This document shows positions 1 to 37,166 of a stretch of DNA of 37,166 bases, piece after piece. The stretch spans positions 1 through 37,166 of the IMG/VR virus record IMGVR_UViG_3300034111_000097. One strand, 5' to 3'. A program made the position numbers and the translations under genes. The notes below the pieces were generated by a model that was not told the origin of the DNA, did not search any database, and worked only from the letters and a program-made list of their open reading frames with translations. Each line of letters opens with the position of its first letter. Positions within the stretch are counted from its first letter, which is position 1. The stretch is from a virus.

Positions 1-246
1 CAATCCATGCAGCCCATGTGTCAGCCAATGCAAGGCTATGGCCAATATGGCTACAGCAACAATCACGGCTTTAACGCCACCACCAATGGCATCCCAAGCC
101 AGCCATTTGGCGCCATGCCCAAGTGGACCAACCCAGAGCTTGATGAGTCTTGGACCCCTGGTCCACCACCCACAACGCCACCGGACCATCTTGAGGATGA
201 CCATGAGCGCGAGCAATTGGCAGCGGCCAGACAGGAGACTGATTGA
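1..246 (+). CDS. C-terminal part of phage membrane protein (holin candidate), cut by window start
   Basis: This is the hydrophilic tail of the protein complete at 36400-36912. It is rich in Met, Gln, Gly, Tyr and Pro: a short MQPMCQPMQ stretch, then Gly/Tyr/Asn repeats, then an acidic end. It is open from base 1, so the start lies outside the window. The stop codon (244-246) overlaps the ATG of the Rz gene by one base (TGATG), consistent with translational coupling in a lysis cassette. The right-hand copy has one extra Gly and an Asp to Glu change. After circularisation only one copy would be kept. Function is discussed under the complete copy. Confidence 0.8.
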   Translation, partial: QSMQPMCQPMQGYGQYGYSNNHGFNATTNGIPSQPFGAMPKWTNPELDESWTPGPPPTTPPDHLEDDHEREQLAAARQETD

Positions 247-500
247 TGTTACCAATACCCCTACCCTGGCTCATTGTTGGTGTCTTGGTCTCATTATTCG
301 GTACATACCGAGTGGGCCACCACTACGGGTGGCTAGAGCGAGACAATGACATGAAGATTGCCATTGCCAAAAAGAATGATGAAGCCAGAGCCAAAGAGGC
401 AGAGCTTGGCACTAAGTTGATTGACCAGGAAACGAAACTCAGAAAGGCCCAAGATGATGTCAAGAAAAAACAGTCTGCTATGCATGAGCTTGCTAGGACT
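1..500. repeat. Left copy of diverged terminal repeat
   Basis: This segment matches 36664-37166 with about 12 substitutions and one 3-base indel. The last ~117 bases (384-500) are identical. Eleven of the 12 substitutions are synonymous, one is Asp to Glu, and the indel adds one glycine codon in the right copy. The pattern means the sequence runs once round a circular or terminally redundant genome of about 36,663 bp and re-enters it on a slightly different strain haplotype. A packaged direct terminal repeat would normally be identical, so population variation joined by assembly is the simplest reading. Confidence 0.9.
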
Positions 501-3824: not shown

Positions 3825-5063
<1,239 letters not shown>

Positions 5064-29389: not shown

Positions 29390-30036
29390 ACTACATTGCT
29401 GTATGCACACCGGCCCGTGATCAGGTCCACACAAATTACACCTATTGCATGGTGAATATGGTGGCCTATCACACACTCAACACCACAGACGCAATCAGTC
29501 TGAAATTGATGCAAGGCACGATTATCCAAAACCAAAGGGCTGACCTTTGCTTGGATGCCATGGCCGAGGGCTGCACACACATTCTTTTCATTGATTCGGA
29601 CATGACGTTTCCACAGGACATGGTCCAGCGGCTCTTGAAGCACGACAAAGAGATTGTGGCTGCCAACTGTGCCAGGCGCAGAATGCCCACTGGACCAACT
29701 GCCCAGAACTATGACGAGAACGGCAAGCGCCAATCGGTCTACACCATGCCAGAATCGACTGGATTGGAAGAGGTGGGAAGCATTGGAACGGGCATAATGC
29801 TGATCAAGCGCGAGGTGTTTGAGGGCATGAGTGAGCCATGGTTTGATATGCCATGGCAGACCACCAGAGGCTACATGGGAGAAGATGTGTTCTTTTGTAA
29901 GAAAGCTCAAGAGCTAGGTTACAAGGTCTACATCGACCATGATGTCTCAAAGGAAATTGGCCACATTGGCACATTTGAGTTTCGCCATGAACACACTTGG
30001 ATTGTGAAAGAAGAGATGGAAAAAGAGGCCCAATAA
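29386..30036 (+). CDS. Family 2-like glycosyltransferase
   Basis: A 216-residue GT-A protein inside the head genes. The N-terminal MNYIAVCTPARDQVHTNY is followed by the DSD metal site in ILFIDSDMTFP (Asp70, Asp72), a GTGIMLIKREVF acceptor segment, and GEDVFFC (164-170) with the likely catalytic acid, then His184 and His192. Phages carry such genes to decorate virion proteins. Unlike the pair at 22506-23784 it is flanked by structural genes, so a capsid or tail target is likely. Overlaps at both ends. Confidence 0.78.
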   Translation: MNYIAVCTPARDQVHTNYTYCMVNMVAYHTLNTTDAISLKLMQGTIIQNQRADLCLDAMAEGCTHILFIDSDMTFPQDMVQRLLKHDKEIVAANCARRRMPTGPTAQNYDENGKRQSVYTMPESTGLEEVGSIGTGIMLIKREVFEGMSEPWFDMPWQTTRGYMGEDVFFCKKAQELGYKVYIDHDVSKEIGHIGTFEFRHEHTWIVKEEMEKEAQ

Positions 30037-30659
30037 TGGCACTGACTACATACGCGGAACTGAAGACATCCATTGGTGACTGGCTGAACCGGTCAGACCT
30101 GACTTCTGTCATTCCTGACTTTATCTCTCTGGCCGAGGCACAAGTGGAACGCACACTGCGCACCAGGCAGATGATTGTCAGGGCCAATGCGTCTTTTGAT
30201 GCGCAATATGGCGCAGTGCCAAGTGACTTTTTGGAGGTTAAATCCCTCAAACTCACAAGCACAAACCCCCAGACACCATTGCAGTTTTTGAGCATTGATG
30301 CCTTGGATAATGAGATGACCAAGTACACGGCCAGCGGCAAGCCCAAATTCTTTGGTGTGGTCGGTGGCCAATTCCGAATTGTCCCGACACCAGACAGTAA
30401 CTACACGACCGAGCTGACCTATTACGCAAAGTTGACAAAGTTATCAAGCAGTGTCTCAAGCAATTGGCTTTTGGCCTCAAGTCCCGACATTTATCTGTAT
30501 GGCGCATTGCTCCAGGCTGCCCCATACTTGCAAGATGATGCGAGAATCCAGACATGGGCAACGCTGTATGAGCGAGCCTTAAATGACGCGCAAACTGCCG
30601 ATGATCGCGGTGCATCTTCTGGTGGTGCATTGCTAACCCGTGCAAAGACTTTTGGATAA
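30036..30659 (+). CDS. Head-tail adaptor protein (P22 gp4-like)
   Basis: A 207-residue adaptor starting at ATG 30036, which shares a base with the previous stop. It is all helical, with DWLNRSDLTSVIPDFISLAEAQVERTLRTRQM in the N-terminal part (given as motifs: WLNRSDL, DFISLAEAQ, RTLRTRQM) and a central strand pair FRIVPTPDSN/ELTYYAKL. This matches podoviral adaptors that bind under the portal. It closes the head-assembly block; tail genes follow. Confidence 0.8.
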   Translation: MALTTYAELKTSIGDWLNRSDLTSVIPDFISLAEAQVERTLRTRQMIVRANASFDAQYGAVPSDFLEVKSLKLTSTNPQTPLQFLSIDALDNEMTKYTASGKPKFFGVVGGQFRIVPTPDSNYTTELTYYAKLTKLSSSVSSNWLLASSPDIYLYGALLQAAPYLQDDARIQTWATLYERALNDAQTADDRGASSGGALLTRAKTFG

Positions 30660-30669
30660 GGACTAGACC

Positions 30670-31065
30670 ATGTCATCTTTCAGCGACTACACCGAAAACC
30701 TAGTTTTAAATTTTCTATTTACAACGAACACGGCCACGCGCCCCACTGCCTGGTATGTTGGCCTTTTCACGGCTGCCCCAAGCGACACGGGTGGCGGCAC
30801 TGAGGTGTCTGGCAGCGCCTACGCACGGGTGGTCACTGGCACGATCTCCGGCTCTGGCACGGCCACGACATTCACCAATGCAGCGGCCATCGAGTTTGCA
30901 GCTGCTTCTGGCGGTAACTGGGGATCAGTAGGCTGGGCTGGCATTTTTGATGCAAGCACATCCGGCAATCTATTAGCCTGGGCTCCACTCACCACAGCGC
31001 GCACCATCAATGATGGTGATGTCTTGCGCATTCCAGCCGCATCTTTGAGCATCACATTGGCCTGA
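30670..31065 (+). CDS. Phage tail fibre-like protein (Gp80 family type)
   Basis: A 131-residue protein with the pattern TAWYVGLFTAAPSDTGGGTEVSG then YARVV, and a C-terminal GNLLAWAPLTTARTINDGD followed by SLSITLA. This is the signature of the Gp80-like tail protein family (a beta-rich, trimer-forming domain of tail fibres). ATG 30670 has AAGGACT upstream. It sits at the head of the tail/fibre block. Confidence 0.78.
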   Translation: MSSFSDYTENLVLNFLFTTNTATRPTAWYVGLFTAAPSDTGGGTEVSGSAYARVVTGTISGSGTATTFTNAAAIEFAAASGGNWGSVGWAGIFDASTSGNLLAWAPLTTARTINDGDVLRIPAASLSITLA

Positions 31066-31066
31066 T

Positions 31067-31879
31067 ATGGCAGCCTATGGATCGGGGAATTTTGGTGCTG
31101 GCCAATACTCTGATCCGAGGGTAGGCTACGGCTACGGCTCCTACGGCAAGGGAAACTACTCCAGAGGCACATTTGAGCCTCAAGTAATTATTTCAGACAC
31201 CAGCACCATGGCGGTGGCTGGTTCAACTGTTTCCAACGCGCAATTTGAGATTTTTGACCAGTCCACCATGGCGGTGGCTGCCATCAGGTATGTGTCTGCT
31301 GCAATAGCAATCACATCCACTAGCACAATGTCTGTGCAGGCCAATGAGGTCTTTGACGGGGCAATGGCCATCACTGGCACAAGCACCATGGCCGTGGCGG
31401 CCAATAGGCTCACAACTGCATCAGCCACAATCAGCGACACCAGCACCATGGCCGTGGCAGGGGTGCGCTATGCGGTGGGCGCAGCCGCCATCAGCGACAC
31501 AAGCACCATGGCGGTGGCTGGTCTAAGATACGCCATTGGCGCGGCCACTATCACAGACACATCAACCCTGACAGTGTCCACCACCATCATTGGCAATTCT
31601 GGCTTTGCCATGACTGGCACAAGCGTCATGGTGGTAAATGCGCAGCGCAGGCAGCCTGGTGCAATTGCATTCACAGAAACATCATCCATGGCGGTCAATG
31701 CAAGACTAAAATGGGAAGCAGAAAGTGACACGGCAGAATCTTGGGGTGCGATCTCTGATAATTCAGAAACATGGACCCCAATCTCTGACCAGTCAGAAAC
31801 ATGGACTGCAATTAGTGATTCAAGTGAAACTTGGACTCCAATTGCTGATAATAGTGAATCTTGGCAAATTGCCGCATGA
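31067..31879 (+). CDS. Tandem-repeat tail protein
   Basis: A 270-residue protein in three parts. Residues 1-39 are Gly/Tyr-rich. Residues 40-219 are nine exact 20-residue repeats built on (S/T)DTSTMAVA followed by about ten variable residues. Residues 220-269 are five 10-residue repeats (SDxSETWxxI, such as SDNSETWTPI). The repeats suggest a beta-solenoid or fibrous stalk, as in tail fibres. It lies between the Gp80-like protein and a fibre gene with a [12 protein letters not shown] start. Start ATG overlaps the previous stop region. Function is inferred. Confidence 0.75.
   Translation: MAAYGSGNFGAGQYSDPRVGYGYGSYGKGNYSRGTFEPQVIISDTSTMAVAGSTVSNAQFEIFDQSTMAVAAIRYVSAAIAITSTSTMSVQANEVFDGAMAITGTSTMAVAANRLTTASATISDTSTMAVAGVRYAVGAAAISDTSTMAVAGLRYAIGAATITDTSTLTVSTTIIGNSGFAMTGTSVMVVNAQRRQPGAIAFTETSSMAVNARLKWEAESDTAESWGAISDNSETWTPISDQSETWTAISDSSETWTPIADNSESWQIAA
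31184..31723 (+). repeat. Nine 60-nt tandem repeats (20-residue protein repeat)
   Basis: The phrase ending CACCATGGCGGTGGC recurs every 60 bases at the same phase, from 31205 to about 31690, with later units more diverged. Units 5 and 6 are the most alike. The exact period and a codon-preserved core point to duplication by unequal recombination, and copy number could vary between phages. Confidence 0.9.
31724..31873 (+). repeat. Five 30-nt tandem repeats (10-residue repeat)
   Basis: A second repeat family abuts the first, with a 30-base period coding SDxSETWxxI. Trp is kept in all five units and the two-residue turn alternates GAI/TPI/TAI. It probably forms the end of the stalk. Confidence 0.85.
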
Positions 31880-31887
31880 GGTGAAAA

Positions 31888-32703
31888 ATGGCTGATACAA
31901 CCACCACGAATCTATTGCTGACCAAACCAGAAGTCGGTGCATCCACCGACAGCTGGGGAACGAAGATCAATTCTGACCTAGATAGCATTGACGCATTGTT
32001 TGATGCAGGCCCAGTGCTAAAGGTCACAAAAGGTGGCACGGGTGGCGCTACTGCATCAGCAGCCAGGACAGCACTTGGCTTGGCCATTGGCACTGATGTG
32101 CTGGCCTATGACTCCAACTTGCAGAGCTTTGTCACGGCATTCACATTGCCCACAGCTGACAGCACGGCCAATTTTGTCTTGAAGACAAACGGCTCTGGCA
32201 CTTTAGGTTTTGCAGCTCCAGCTGCTGGTGATGCTGTGCTTTCAGCAGATCAAACCTTTACAGGCACAAACACCTTTTCTGGCTCTAGCAGTAAAACAGC
32301 CATTGTCCTAACCGATGCAGCAGAGGTCGCTACAGTATCTGCAACAGCAGCTACAGGCACGATTGCTTACGACATTACTACTCAGTCTGTTCTGTATTAC
32401 ACAAGCAACGCAAGTGCCAACTGGACAGTTAACTTCAGAGGCTCTAGCGGTACATCATTGAATACTTTGATGAGTACAGGTCAATCAATGACTGTGGCTT
32501 TCTTGGTGACTCAAGGCTCTACTGCTTACTACAACTCTGCTGTGCAAGTTGATGGCACTACATCAGGTGTTACGACTAGGTGGTTAGGTGGTGCGCCTAC
32601 TGCTGGAAATGCTAGTGGAATAGACAGTTACCGCTTCGCAATTCTGAAAACTGGAAGTGCTACATTCACTATCCTTGCCTCAGTAACACAATTTAAGGCT
32701 TAA
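31888..32703 (+). CDS. Tail fibre protein
   Basis: A 271-residue protein. The beginning [19 protein letters not shown] then [14 protein letters not shown] is the common start of phage tail fibres that attach to a baseplate or hub. The middle is Ala/Thr/Gly-rich with [10 protein letters not shown], and the C-terminus is a beta-rich, Thr/Ser-rich domain ([16 protein letters not shown]) that may be an exposed tip. AAGGTG-like sequence lies upstream. It is the first of two consecutive receptor-directed genes. Confidence 0.8.
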
Positions 32704-32706
32704 ACC

Positions 32707-34647
32707 ATGCCATTACAAGCAACTTCTGGTGCAGCTAGTTACGATGCCTTTGGTGGTGGTGTTCCTGTTGTGCCTAACTACATTGAGGAAGTGTTTTCTT
32801 GCTTCCTTTACACAGGAAATGGCTCTACACAGACCATTACCAATGGTATTGATTTATCTACTAAGGGTGGCTTGGTTTGGTGTAAGGGGCGTAATTATGT
32901 TGAATATCATGGATTATTTGACACCGTAAGGGGGCGCACTAAAGCACTGTATTCAAACGATGCAGCAGCCGAGGCTAATGCCGCCGATACAATTGGCTCG
33001 TTTAATTCCAATGGGTTTTCTTTAGGGTCTGATTCTTGGATAAATACAAACACAAAATCAATTGTCTCATGGACATTCCGCAAGCAACCAAAGTTTTTTG
33101 ATATTGTGTATTACACGGGGACAGGTTCTAACAGGACTATTGCACACAATCTTGGGTCTGTGCCTGGTTGCATTATTATTAAAAGCACAGACACAGTAAC
33201 AAATTGGGCGGTTTACCATAAAGATTTAGCCAACACAGAATATCTTGTTTTAAATAGCACGGCTGCCAAAGCAACTGGTGCAACTTGGTGGAATAGCACA
33301 ACCCCCACATCCTCAGTCTTTAGCGTTGGTACAAACTCAACTGTTAATGCATTAGGTTCTGCTTACATTGCTTATGTATTTGCACATGACGCAGGAGGCT
33401 TTGGCCTAACTGGTACAGACAATGTGATTTCGTGTGGGTCGTTTACATATAGCGGAAGTGAAGTACCAGTAAATTTAGGATATGAACCACAATTTATTTT
33501 AGCCAAAACTGTTAATCGGACTATTGGTTGGGAAATGCATGACGTAATGCGAGGAATGCCTGCTGGTACAGGTTCAAATGTCGCACTATTAAATCCTAAT
33601 AGTTCTGGTGCTGAAAGTGTTGCAGGATATCCATATCATCCGACAGCAACTGGATTTATTGTAGACGCTGGTTACTACACTAATCCAACTACTGTCATCT
33701 ACATAGCCATTCGCAGAGGCCCGATGAAAGTGCCTACGAGTGGGACTAGTGTGTTTAGCCCTGTAACATACACAGGTAACGCTACCGCAAGGTCAATTTC
33801 TGGGCTTGGGTTTCCACCTGATTTAGTGTTTCCTAAAATTAGAGATAATGGCGGTGGATTTAATGGAACAATGACTGATAGACTTCGTGGTGCTACAAAT
33901 TATTTAATTCCAAATGACACATCTGCTGAAGCAACAAACGCTAATTATGTGACTGTACTTGGTCAAGATGGTTTTTCTCTTGGTTCTGGTGCTGATGTGA
34001 ATAGAAACACAAGCACTTTTATTTCTTGGAACTTCAGACGCGCCCCTAGCTTCTTTGATGAGGTTTGTTATGCAGGGGATGACACAGCGATGATAATAAA
34101 TCATAATCTTGGTGTGCCTCCTGAATTGATTATTGTTAAAAAAAGAAACGATGCACAAAATTGGACTGTTTCCAGAAGTTCAGATTTAACTAAAAATATT
34201 TCTTTAAATGTAGCAACTGCTGAAAATTCGTACACGACATATTCGTCGCTGACTTCAACGACAGTTACTTTTAACAGTGCTGGTACTGGCTTAACAACTA
34301 GTGGTAGCACATATGTTATGTACTTATTTGCCACTTGCGCAGGTGTTTCCAAAGTATTTTTATACACAGGCAATGGCTCATCACAGACTATTAATTGTGG
34401 CTTTACAGGTGGGGCGAGGTGGATTCTAATAAAGCGCACCGACTCTACAGGAGATTGGTATGTGTGGGATACGGCACGAGGTATCGTGTCAGGAAATGAC
34501 CCTTACCTTAGATTGAATTCAACAGCCGCTGAAGTAACAACAAATGACACAATTGACACAGACTCAACTGGCTTTGTAGTAAACCAAGTTGCGGCAACTA
34601 ATGTAAATGTATCTTCTGCAACCTATATCGGACTCGCAATAGCGTAA
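32707..34647 (+). CDS. Receptor-binding tail protein with repeated modules
   Basis: A 646-residue protein built of repeated beta modules. Each has a FLYTGNG(S)xQTI start, a LxxxKxR-W-V stretch, DTxRG, then NSTAAEA-like and FxxSWxFRxxPxFFD sections. Copies start near residues 33, 128, 254, 340, 450 and 548. Such DUF7483-type arrays form exposed fibre tips that touch the host. Coding here is visibly AT-richer than in neighbouring genes, suggesting replacement from elsewhere. A chaperone-like gene follows. Confidence 0.75.
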   Translation: MPLQATSGAASYDAFGGGVPVVPNYIEEVFSCFLYTGNGSTQTITNGIDLSTKGGLVWCKGRNYVEYHGLFDTVRGRTKALYSNDAAAEANAADTIGSFNSNGFSLGSDSWINTNTKSIVSWTFRKQPKFFDIVYYTGTGSNRTIAHNLGSVPGCIIIKSTDTVTNWAVYHKDLANTEYLVLNSTAAKATGATWWNSTTPTSSVFSVGTNSTVNALGSAYIAYVFAHDAGGFGLTGTDNVISCGSFTYSGSEVPVNLGYEPQFILAKTVNRTIGWEMHDVMRGMPAGTGSNVALLNPNSSGAESVAGYPYHPTATGFIVDAGYYTNPTTVIYIAIRRGPMKVPTSGTSVFSPVTYTGNATARSISGLGFPPDLVFPKIRDNGGGFNGTMTDRLRGATNYLIPNDTSAEATNANYVTVLGQDGFSLGSGADVNRNTSTFISWNFRRAPSFFDEVCYAGDDTAMIINHNLGVPPELIIVKKRNDAQNWTVSRSSDLTKNISLNVATAENSYTTYSSLTSTTVTFNSAGTGLTTSGSTYVMYLFATCAGVSKVFLYTGNGSSQTINCGFTGGARWILIKRTDSTGDWYVWDTARGIVSGNDPYLRLNSTAAEVTTNDTIDTDSTGFVVNQVAATNVNVSSATYIGLAIA

Positions 34648-36422: not shown

Positions 36423-36912
36423 AGAGATCGAGGTCAGGGTCTGGGGCTTTGTGGTCATTGCGGTGACTTGCATTCTCTGCTTCATTGTGGTGGCGCTTTT
36501 GTACTCAGTGACCTTTGTCACCCAGCCCATCAAATCAATGGCCCCCATTGACCAGGCATATACAAAGATGCTGAACGATATCGTTCTATTGATTGTGGGT
36601 GGCATTGGCGCGGTTATGGGTAAGAAGGCTGTGGGGACTGCCGCCAAGGCTTTTGGTGGCCAACAATCCATGCAGCCGATGTGCCAGCCCATGCAAGGCG
36701 GCTATGGCCAATATGGCTACAGCAACAATCACGGCTTTAACGCCACCACCAATGGCATCCCAAGCCAGCCATTTGGCGCTATGCCCAAGTGGACCAACCC
36801 AGAGCTTGACGAGTCTTGGACCCCTGGTCCACCACCCACAACGCCACCAGAGCATCTTGAGGATGACCATGAGCGCGAGCAATTGGCAGCGGCCAGACAG
36901 GAGACTGATTGA
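36400..36912 (+). CDS. Two-helix membrane protein, holin candidate
   Basis: A 170-residue protein starting at ATG 36400 (GGAG at 36386-36389, 10-base spacing); a longer frame from 36313 would overlap the lipoprotein gene. It has two hydrophobic segments, about 16-40 (VIAVTCILCFIVVALLYSV) and 60-75 (DIVLLIVGGIGAVMG), then a Gln/Met/Gly/Tyr-rich cytoplasmic-like tail. Its stop shares a base with the Rz start, and Rz, Rz1 and endolysin follow. Holin is the natural guess from position, but the tail is long for a holin. Its 3' part repeats at 1-246. Confidence 0.7.
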   Translation: MKLNLTTEEIEVRVWGFVVIAVTCILCFIVVALLYSVTFVTQPIKSMAPIDQAYTKMLNDIVLLIVGGIGAVMGKKAVGTAAKAFGGQQSMQPMCQPMQGGYGQYGYSNNHGFNATTNGIPSQPFGAMPKWTNPELDESWTPGPPPTTPPEHLEDDHEREQLAAARQETD

Positions 36913-37166
36913 TGTTACCAATACCCTTACCCTGGCTCATTGTTGGCGTCTTGGTCTCATTATTCGGTACATACCGAGTGGGCCACCACTACGGATGGCT
37001 AGAGCGAGACAATGACATGAAGATTGCCATTGCCAAAAAGAACGATGAGGCCAGAGCCAAAGAGGCAGAGCTTGGCACTAAGTTGATTGACCAGGAAACG
37101 AAACTCAGAAAGGCCCAAGATGATGTCAAGAAAAAACAGTCTGCTATGCATGAGCTTGCTAGGACT
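36912..37166 (+). CDS. Rz: Rz-like i-spanin, 5' part cut by window end
   Basis: The second copy of the start of Rz: the first 85 codons, same one-base overlap with the upstream stop. The differences to the left copy in this part (Leu, Gly, Gly, Asn and Glu codons) are all silent, so the encoded i-spanin N-terminus and coiled coil are identical. It runs off the window at 37166. Confidence 0.85.
   Translation, partial: MLPIPLPWLIVGVLVSLFGTYRVGHHYGWLERDNDMKIAIAKKNDEARAKEAELGTKLIDQETKLRKAQDDVKKKQSAMHELART
37120..37166 (+). CDS. Rz1: Rz1-like o-spanin, 5' part cut by window end
   Basis: The nested o-spanin start repeats at ATG 37120 with the same AGAAAGG upstream and the Met-Met-Ser-Arg-Lys start. 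The window ends before the lipobox Cys. The identical sequence in both copies across this stretch fits constraint from two overlapping frames. Confidence 0.7.
   Translation, partial: MMSRKNSLLCMSLLG

What the first reader, a model, noticed from the sequence alone, without database searches (positions are those of the whole stretch)
31184..31873. Two abutting tandem repeat systems in one tail protein
Nine exact 60-base units followed by five 30-base units, phase-locked to codons. A change in period from 20 to 10 residues within one protein suggests a stalk of two textures. Unit count may vary and could tune fibre length or host contact.
Basis: partly seen in the sequence, partly recalled or inferred. 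Interest (0 to 1): 0.58.

Follow-up and report, generated by a model that had tools for sequence, protein, structure and literature searches.

The report
String protein of a phage fibre
A phage gene encodes a chain of repeated segments that most likely serves as the string on which small partner proteins are threaded to build a host-contacting fibre, and across related phages the string grows or shrinks only by whole segments.

Summary
The arrays are real and correctly placed (nine 20-residue units, then five 10-residue units), but the units are imperfect, not exact. The gene lies directly behind a homolog of gp80, the fibre I protein of podophage GP4 (Pfam PF23140; PDB 8jou). Of 294 distinct complete proteins encoded right after gp80 homologs, 277 have 20 or 40 residues as their strongest period and 269 pass z>4; among 1575 control ORFs only 9 do, 8 of them displaced copies of the same protein type. 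In the window's clade (146 distinct proteins) the long array holds 5, 6, 9, 17, 21 or 22 units, nearly always on an exact 20-residue lattice, while close relatives keep nine. The gene after gp80 in a GP4-type phage shows the same period, although sequence homology to it is not detectable. The rule reaches mycobacteriophages and, tested as a prediction, a myophage. Best reading: a string ("rope") carrying gp80 subunits, whose unit number sets fibre length. Rope-gp80 contact and stoichiometry are inferred. Reader partly supported.

The parts
29997..30659 (+). SU10-type adaptor (tail adaptor gene ahead of the fibre module)
   Evidence: PF24175 E 6.6e-40; phrog_2941 E 3.1e-55
30670..31065 (+). gp80 homolog (GP4 fibre I subunit), proposed bead
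   Evidence: PF23140 E 1.4e-39; 8jou_a E 5.4e-11; phrog_240 E 2.9e-24
31067..31879 (+). repeat protein, 270 aa, proposed string ('rope')
   Evidence: ORF; 89 of 89 relatives with enough upstream sequence have gp80 directly upstream
31076..31177 (+). two Y/G-rich 17-residue N-terminal units (residues 4-37), proposed end connector
   Evidence: 17-residue length difference between 253- and 270-residue relatives
31184..31723 (+). nine 20-residue units (residues 40-219), consensus about xxIxDTSTMAVAAxRxAxGA
31724..31873 (+). five Trp decapeptides (residues 220-269), 5, 3 or 2 in relatives
31888..32703 (+). fibre protein with MADTTTTN...LTKPEVG start; proposed next component of the fibre
   Evidence: phrog_5906 E 8.2e-25, phrog_24210 (tail fiber) E 0.0011; a gene with this start follows the repeat protein in 142 window-clade cases
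32707..34647 (+). tail fibre / virion structural protein
   Evidence: PF24299 DUF7483 E 7.2e-110; phrog_19943 and phrog_24898

Best explanation
The protein is the string component of a two-part fibre of the kind seen in podophage GP4. Its 20-residue units, each an amphipathic beta segment, form a row of seats for the neighbouring gp80 subunits, which line up along it like beads. The number of units, which changes only in whole 20-residue steps, sets how many gp80 subunits a fibre carries and how long it is. The Y/G-rich N-terminus and the Trp decapeptides join the two ends to the virion collar and to the next fibre protein. Shown here: the repeats, the link to gp80, the whole-unit variation, the same arrangement in a GP4-type phage. 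Inferred: physical binding to gp80, one unit per subunit, which end is proximal, the effect on fibre length.
For: (1) gp80 directly upstream in 89 of 89 repeat-protein loci with enough upstream DNA. (2) Reverse direction: 269 of 294 distinct proteins right after gp80 have z20>4 and 277 have 20 or 40 as top lag; 9 of 1575 control ORFs do, 8 of which are the same type displaced. In 17 low-scoring loci inspected, a repeat protein lies elsewhere in 6 (L315, L300, L339, L295, L302, L107). (3) Window clade, 146 distinct proteins: 9 units in 129, 6 in 12, 22 in 2, and 5, 17, 21 in one each; 140 of 146 exactly on the 20-residue lattice, 6 off by one. (4) L438 carries a gp80 identical to 8jou_a over 138 residues; its next gene (325 aa) has lag 20 on top and 11 clear units, against 10 gp80 chains in 8jou. 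(5) Annotated phages of other groups: local z20 of 5 or more near the gp80 homolog in 16 of 25 loci, one of these doubtful, including mycobacteriophages Oline, Jubie and MkaliMitinis3; null maximum 2.1 in 47 ORFs. (6) Prediction test: PMC13243795 section 16 reports a payload protein beside a badly predicted domain and a partner resembling 8JOU_g; the relative in phage Slicko01 has a 20/40-residue array (the strongest of 131 ORFs) and a phrog_240 member two genes away. (7) The 'rope linking five gp80 dimers' in GP4 is recalled from the abstract of J Mol Biol 2023;435:168258, which I could not open; one search shows its citation.
Against: No sequence homology between the window protein and the GP4-type gene (hhalign probability 0.2%, E 0.34) or BcepIL02 gp56: the link there is position and period only. 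The GP4-type protein has no match in the PDB sequences, so the solved structure does not show it as the rope by sequence. In JC1 virions mass spectrometry found the gp80 homolog gp53, but gp54, the repeat-protein homolog, is not among the proteins listed in the text and table passages that I saw. Some phages with gp80 homologs show no such array nearby: phiM5 (2.8), ACP17, YB07, Venkman, RYC. AlphaFold2 gives a solenoid, not an extended chain. 11 units against 10 gp80 chains is close, not equal, and the unit count depends on the segmentation (14 with weak ones).
Confidence: 0.66

Rival explanations
1. A self-standing beta-solenoid or trimeric stalk: each 20-residue unit is one coil or one shaft repeat, and gp80 is merely a neighbour in the operon.
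For: AlphaFold2 models residues 39-210 as beta structure, with pLDDT 62-87 in the ten-residue blocks from 41 to 170; VIA-align Z up to 18 to solenoid proteins, all unrelated.
Against: No Foldseek match under E 0.05 in the PDB; AlphaFold2 is known to invent such solenoids for repeat sequences (PMC11795689 abstract); nine coils at the usual spacing would make only a short stub (inference); the partnership with gp80 holds across unrelated phages and when gene order is broken.
Confidence: 0.2
2. Unit number is neutral: slippage adds or removes in-frame units, with no effect on fibre length or gp80 number.
For: L328 has recent tandem duplicates, adjacent units 90-98% identical in DNA; the decapeptide count changes between close relatives (L034, 96% identical, lacks two).
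Against: Nine units are kept in 129 of 146 distinct proteins, with each unit position conserved across proteins (49% identity at the same position against 26-29% at different ones), which argues for selection on number and order.
Confidence: 0.25
3. The repeat protein is a cell-surface adhesin in its own right (as the label 'serine-rich adhesin' on some homologs suggests), contacting the host through the repeats.
For: Database labels; Ser/Thr-rich units.
Against: Labels are probably automatic; the adhesin-like domains in distant cases are separate domains beside the array (Gly_rich_2 in Oline gp32; lyase-like domain of LSH1 gp34).
Confidence: 0.1

Closest known systems
Fibre I of Ralstonia podophage GP4 (gp80, PDB 8jou; rope protein recalled from the abstract of J Mol Biol 2023;435:168258)
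   Same: gp80 homolog (E 5.4e-11) with a 20-residue-period protein encoded directly behind it
   Different: no detectable sequence homology between the two repeat proteins; here Trp decapeptides at the C-terminus, there a different C-terminal part; unit number 9 against about 11
BcepIL02 gp56 / phrog_19041 (Bcep22-like phages)
   Same: virion-associated in the record, directly behind the gp80 homolog, lag 20 on top
   Different: hhalign finds no homology to the window family
Alishewanella phage LSH1 module gp34-gp36 and its Slicko01 relative (PMC13243795)
   Same: gp80-like partner and, in Slicko01, an array with a similar D-x-S-T core (BLASTP 3e-5 for the single comparison)
   Different: array fused to payload domains, in a myophage
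Neck fibre of Anabaena phage A-1(L)
   Same: bead-chain fibres, five per virion, on a 15-fold neck ring (passages)
   Different: beads are trimers joined head to tail, no string protein described in the passages seen

Membership tests
GP4-type fibre I module | gp80 (PF23140) gene present | tested here: met
   E 1.4e-39, above the curated cut-off; 8jou_a E 5.4e-11
GP4-type fibre I module | a 20-residue-period protein encoded next to gp80 | tested here: met
   window and L438, the GP4-type phage
GP4-type fibre I module | sequence homology of the repeat protein to that of GP4-type phages | tested here: inconclusive
   hhalign probability 0.2%, E 0.34: none detected; repeats diverge fast, so absence is weak evidence
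GP4-type fibre I module | repeat protein present in the virion | tested here: inconclusive
   BcepIL02 gp56 and BcepMigl gp57 annotated virion-associated; JC1 gp54 not among the proteins listed in the passages shown; nothing for the window phage itself
GP4-type fibre I module | rope physically threads gp80 dimers | not testable with these tools
   no multimer prediction; the 2023 structure paper is not in the library
trimeric beta-fibre shaft (T4/T7/adenovirus type) | trimerisation and a known shaft fold | tested here: inconclusive
   no Foldseek match with E under 0.05; trimer not modelled
beta-solenoid proteins | stacked coils with a buried core | tested here: inconclusive
   AlphaFold2 solenoid-like model, pTM 0.57, mean pLDDT 55.5; known artefact class

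The most novel reading that the evidence does not exclude
A general two-part phage fibre: PF23140/phrog_240 beads seated one per 20-residue unit on a string protein, in podo-, sipho- and myophages including mycobacteriophages, with the string acting as a molecular ruler whose unit count (5 to 22 here) equals, or tracks by a fixed ratio, the number of beads. It would also explain the badly predicted domain beside the LSH1 payload as a string array.
Probability: 0.38. Interest if true: 0.8.

Novelty: new variant of a known kind. Interest (0 to 1): 0.6.

Why it matters
It gives a sequence rule (20-residue period next to a gp80-family gene) that suggests a function for hundreds of unannotated phage proteins, offers an explanation for an open puzzle stated in a 2026 paper (PMC13243795), and turns fibre length control into a test: read the unit number from the genome, count beads by cryo-EM. 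If unit number sets bead number, natural length series (5, 6, 9, 17, 21, 22 units) are already available.

Tried and rejected
Pfam, PHROG and PDB sequence searches with the repeat protein alone gave nothing useful (best phrog_31951, unknown, E 3.7e-4). PDB searches with repeat proteins of phiM5, MEP401, BcepMigl, BcepIL02 and the GP4-type phage gave no relevant hit. Foldseek and VIA-align matches are a mixed bag of unrelated beta-helical proteins; families absent from that list are not excluded. A two-unit quantum for the decapeptides (5 or 3) was dropped after cases with 2 were found. My unit parser gave 10 units for the 270-residue forms because it cut the 39-residue N-terminus at 19; these are nine units. 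A strict dimer parity of unit number was dropped because of the 6- and 22-unit proteins. GP4's own record was not held, nor three relatives. The genome-contig scan gave one short, weak hit. Literature: the listings showed no paper describing the 20-residue rule; the GP4 structure paper is not in the library, so I cannot say whether it names the rope gene.

Full report
OBSERVATION. ORF 31067-31879 encodes 270 residues. Residues 40-219 split into nine 20-residue units and 220-269 into five decapeptides; both periodicities exceed all 2000 shuffles. The repeats are degenerate at DNA level (52% at lag 60, 61% at lag 30; adjacent units 35-75%), so the word 'exact' is wrong while the coordinates are right. 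Across 43 non-redundant family members, position 7 of the unit is Ser in 379 of 387 units, and positions 3, 9 and 11 are mostly Ile, Met and Val, an alternating pattern typical of a one-faced beta segment (inference). The decapeptides continue in the same 20-residue register in an unsupervised segmentation.

CLOSE RELATIVES. A scan with the protein returned 80 loci, 69 of them with exactly 270 residues. With a second scan, 95 loci carry a full-length copy: all 95 have nine long units; 91 have five and 4 have three decapeptides (some loci overlap on one contig, 8 truncated copies were left out of the 95, and 2 of 105 loci gave no ORF to the script). L034 is 96% identical and lacks exactly two decapeptides. 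So among close relatives the long array does not vary.

NEIGHBOUR. The gene directly upstream is a homolog of gp80, fibre I protein of podophage GP4 (PF23140, E 1.4e-39; 8jou_a, E 5.4e-11, 10 chains in one entry). gp80 is directly upstream in 89 of 89 repeat-protein loci with at least 420 bases upstream. I then reversed the question: four gp80 scans, with the loci already held, gave 417 loci with a gp80 homolog. 5 had no ORF behind it and 13 were cut by the contig end; the rest gave 294 distinct complete downstream proteins. Top lag is 20 in 259 and 40 in 18; z20 exceeds 4 in 269 of 294. Of all 1575 control ORFs from the same loci 9 exceed 4, and by my reading 8 of those are repeat proteins of the same type that were not taken as directly following gp80. 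In MW202481 the repeat gene sits 7 kb from gp80, next to a gene resembling the window's next gene.

UNIT NUMBER. In the window's clade (146 distinct proteins beginning MA[AST]YG) there are nine long units in 129, six in 12, 22 in two, and 5, 17 and 21 in one each; decapeptides number five in 118, three in 21, two in 7; 140 of 146 lie exactly on the 20-residue lattice, six are off by one (the parser's '10 units' are nine with a 39-residue N-terminus). The Y/G-rich N-terminus differs by one 17-residue unit. In a second clade the first Trp sits mostly at 162, 222 or 242, again 20-residue steps, with a few one- or two-residue offsets and some other N-termini. L328 shows recent duplication (adjacent units 90-98% identical in DNA). 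The same unit position is more alike across proteins (49%) than different positions within one (29%): in nine-unit proteins the units are not being reshuffled.

GP4-TYPE PHAGE. The GP4 record is not held. Its next gene, 325 residues, has 20 as top lag (in three of the other four close contigs 10 ranks just above 20, in the fourth likewise) and 11 clear units plus three weaker ones in the C-terminal part; it has no match among PDB sequences. Homology to the window family is not detectable by hhalign, while the L116-clade protein is clearly related (probability 96.5%). The structure paper (J Mol Biol 2023;435:168258) was seen only as a citation; that it describes five gp80 dimers linked by an elongated rope protein is recalled.

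HOW WIDE. In annotated phages, a local z20 of 5 or more occurs near the gp80 homolog in 16 of 25 loci (CRP-4, ctXG6705, MEP401, DB2, PVJ1, ct2t2046, C72C1, DC1, BcepIL02, PBC5, POI1126, Oline, Jubie, MkaliMitinis3, Mvi-JY20, Slicko01; Mvi-JY20 is doubtful). It is 3.5-4.2 in BcepMigl, Itty13, prophi86-1 and GordTnk2, and not seen in phiM5, ACP17, YB07, Venkman and RYC; Venkman's 5.0 and YB07's 4.2 are other proteins. The null, 47 ORFs of the Slicko01 early region, has a maximum of 2.1. DB2 gp11 also ends in Trp decapeptides, and Oline gp32 couples the array to a Gly_rich_2 domain.

A PREDICTION TESTED. PMC13243795 (section 16 read) describes in phage LSH1 a payload protein next to a domain that AlphaFold draws as a poor beta helix, asks whether it is repetitive, and reports a partner matching 8JOU_g. 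If the reading here is right, that domain should have a 20-residue period. LSH1 itself was not searched, but its relative Slicko01, named in that paper, does: residues about 1001-1500 and 1601-1720 of an 1843-residue protein have lags 20 and 40 on top, the strongest of 131 ORFs; two genes away lies a phrog_240 member (E 1.7e-9; PF23140 E 0.0036, below the curated cut-off).

STRUCTURE. AlphaFold2 on 43 sequences gave mean pLDDT 55.5 and pTM 0.57, with beta structure over residues 39-210 and both ends under 50. Matches are to unrelated beta-helical proteins. Because AlphaFold2 is known to build unrealistic solenoids from repeats (PMC11795689, abstract), I give this little weight.

MECHANISM. Best reading: a string on which gp80 subunits sit, one per unit or in another fixed ratio. 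11 clear units in the GP4-type string against 10 gp80 chains in 8jou is suggestive only. Against it: JC1 gp54 is not among the virion proteins in the passages I saw although gp53 (gp80) is; no contact between string and gp80 has been shown here; several phages with gp80 homologs lack a visible array.

VERDICT. Interest 0.6: a known kind of fibre, with a new and testable sequence rule.

Noticed in passing
window 1-500 and 36664-37166: The two ends repeat each other at 97% identity (503 aligned columns, 12 mismatches, one gap opening), so the record probably runs slightly more than once round the genome and joins two variants, although IMG/VR classes it as linear.
   Followed up: partly
window 4188-4255: Eleven copies of a GGCACA hexamer give a (GT)n run in ORF 3825-5063.
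   Followed up: no
L328 (22 units) and L325 (21 units): Recently expanded long arrays; in L328 neighbouring units 5-10 are 90-98% identical in DNA.
   Followed up: partly
L433 (Oline gp32/gp33), L448, L450: Mycobacteriophages carry a gp80-family gene (PF23140 E 2.9e-32 in Oline gp33) beside a minor tail protein with a 20-residue array; 650 Mycobacterium phage records match gp33.
   Followed up: partly
L428 1077-1496 (DC1 gp53) and phrog_240: The gp80 homolog is labelled 'major capsid protein' in the DC1 record and 'head protein' in PHROGs; by homology to 8jou this is a fibre protein, so the labels are probably wrong.
   Followed up: no
L108 3671-4486 and clade: In Methylophilales/roseophage relatives the C-terminal Trp repeats have spacing 13-14 (YVKxxGxW) instead of 10, and the N-terminus carries RITE-type repeats.
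   Followed up: no
L114 5402-6427 (Psychrobacillus phage PVJ1): The array forms the N-terminus of a longer protein that looks baseplate-like by its place next to a baseplate J gene (local z20 5.7).
   Followed up: no
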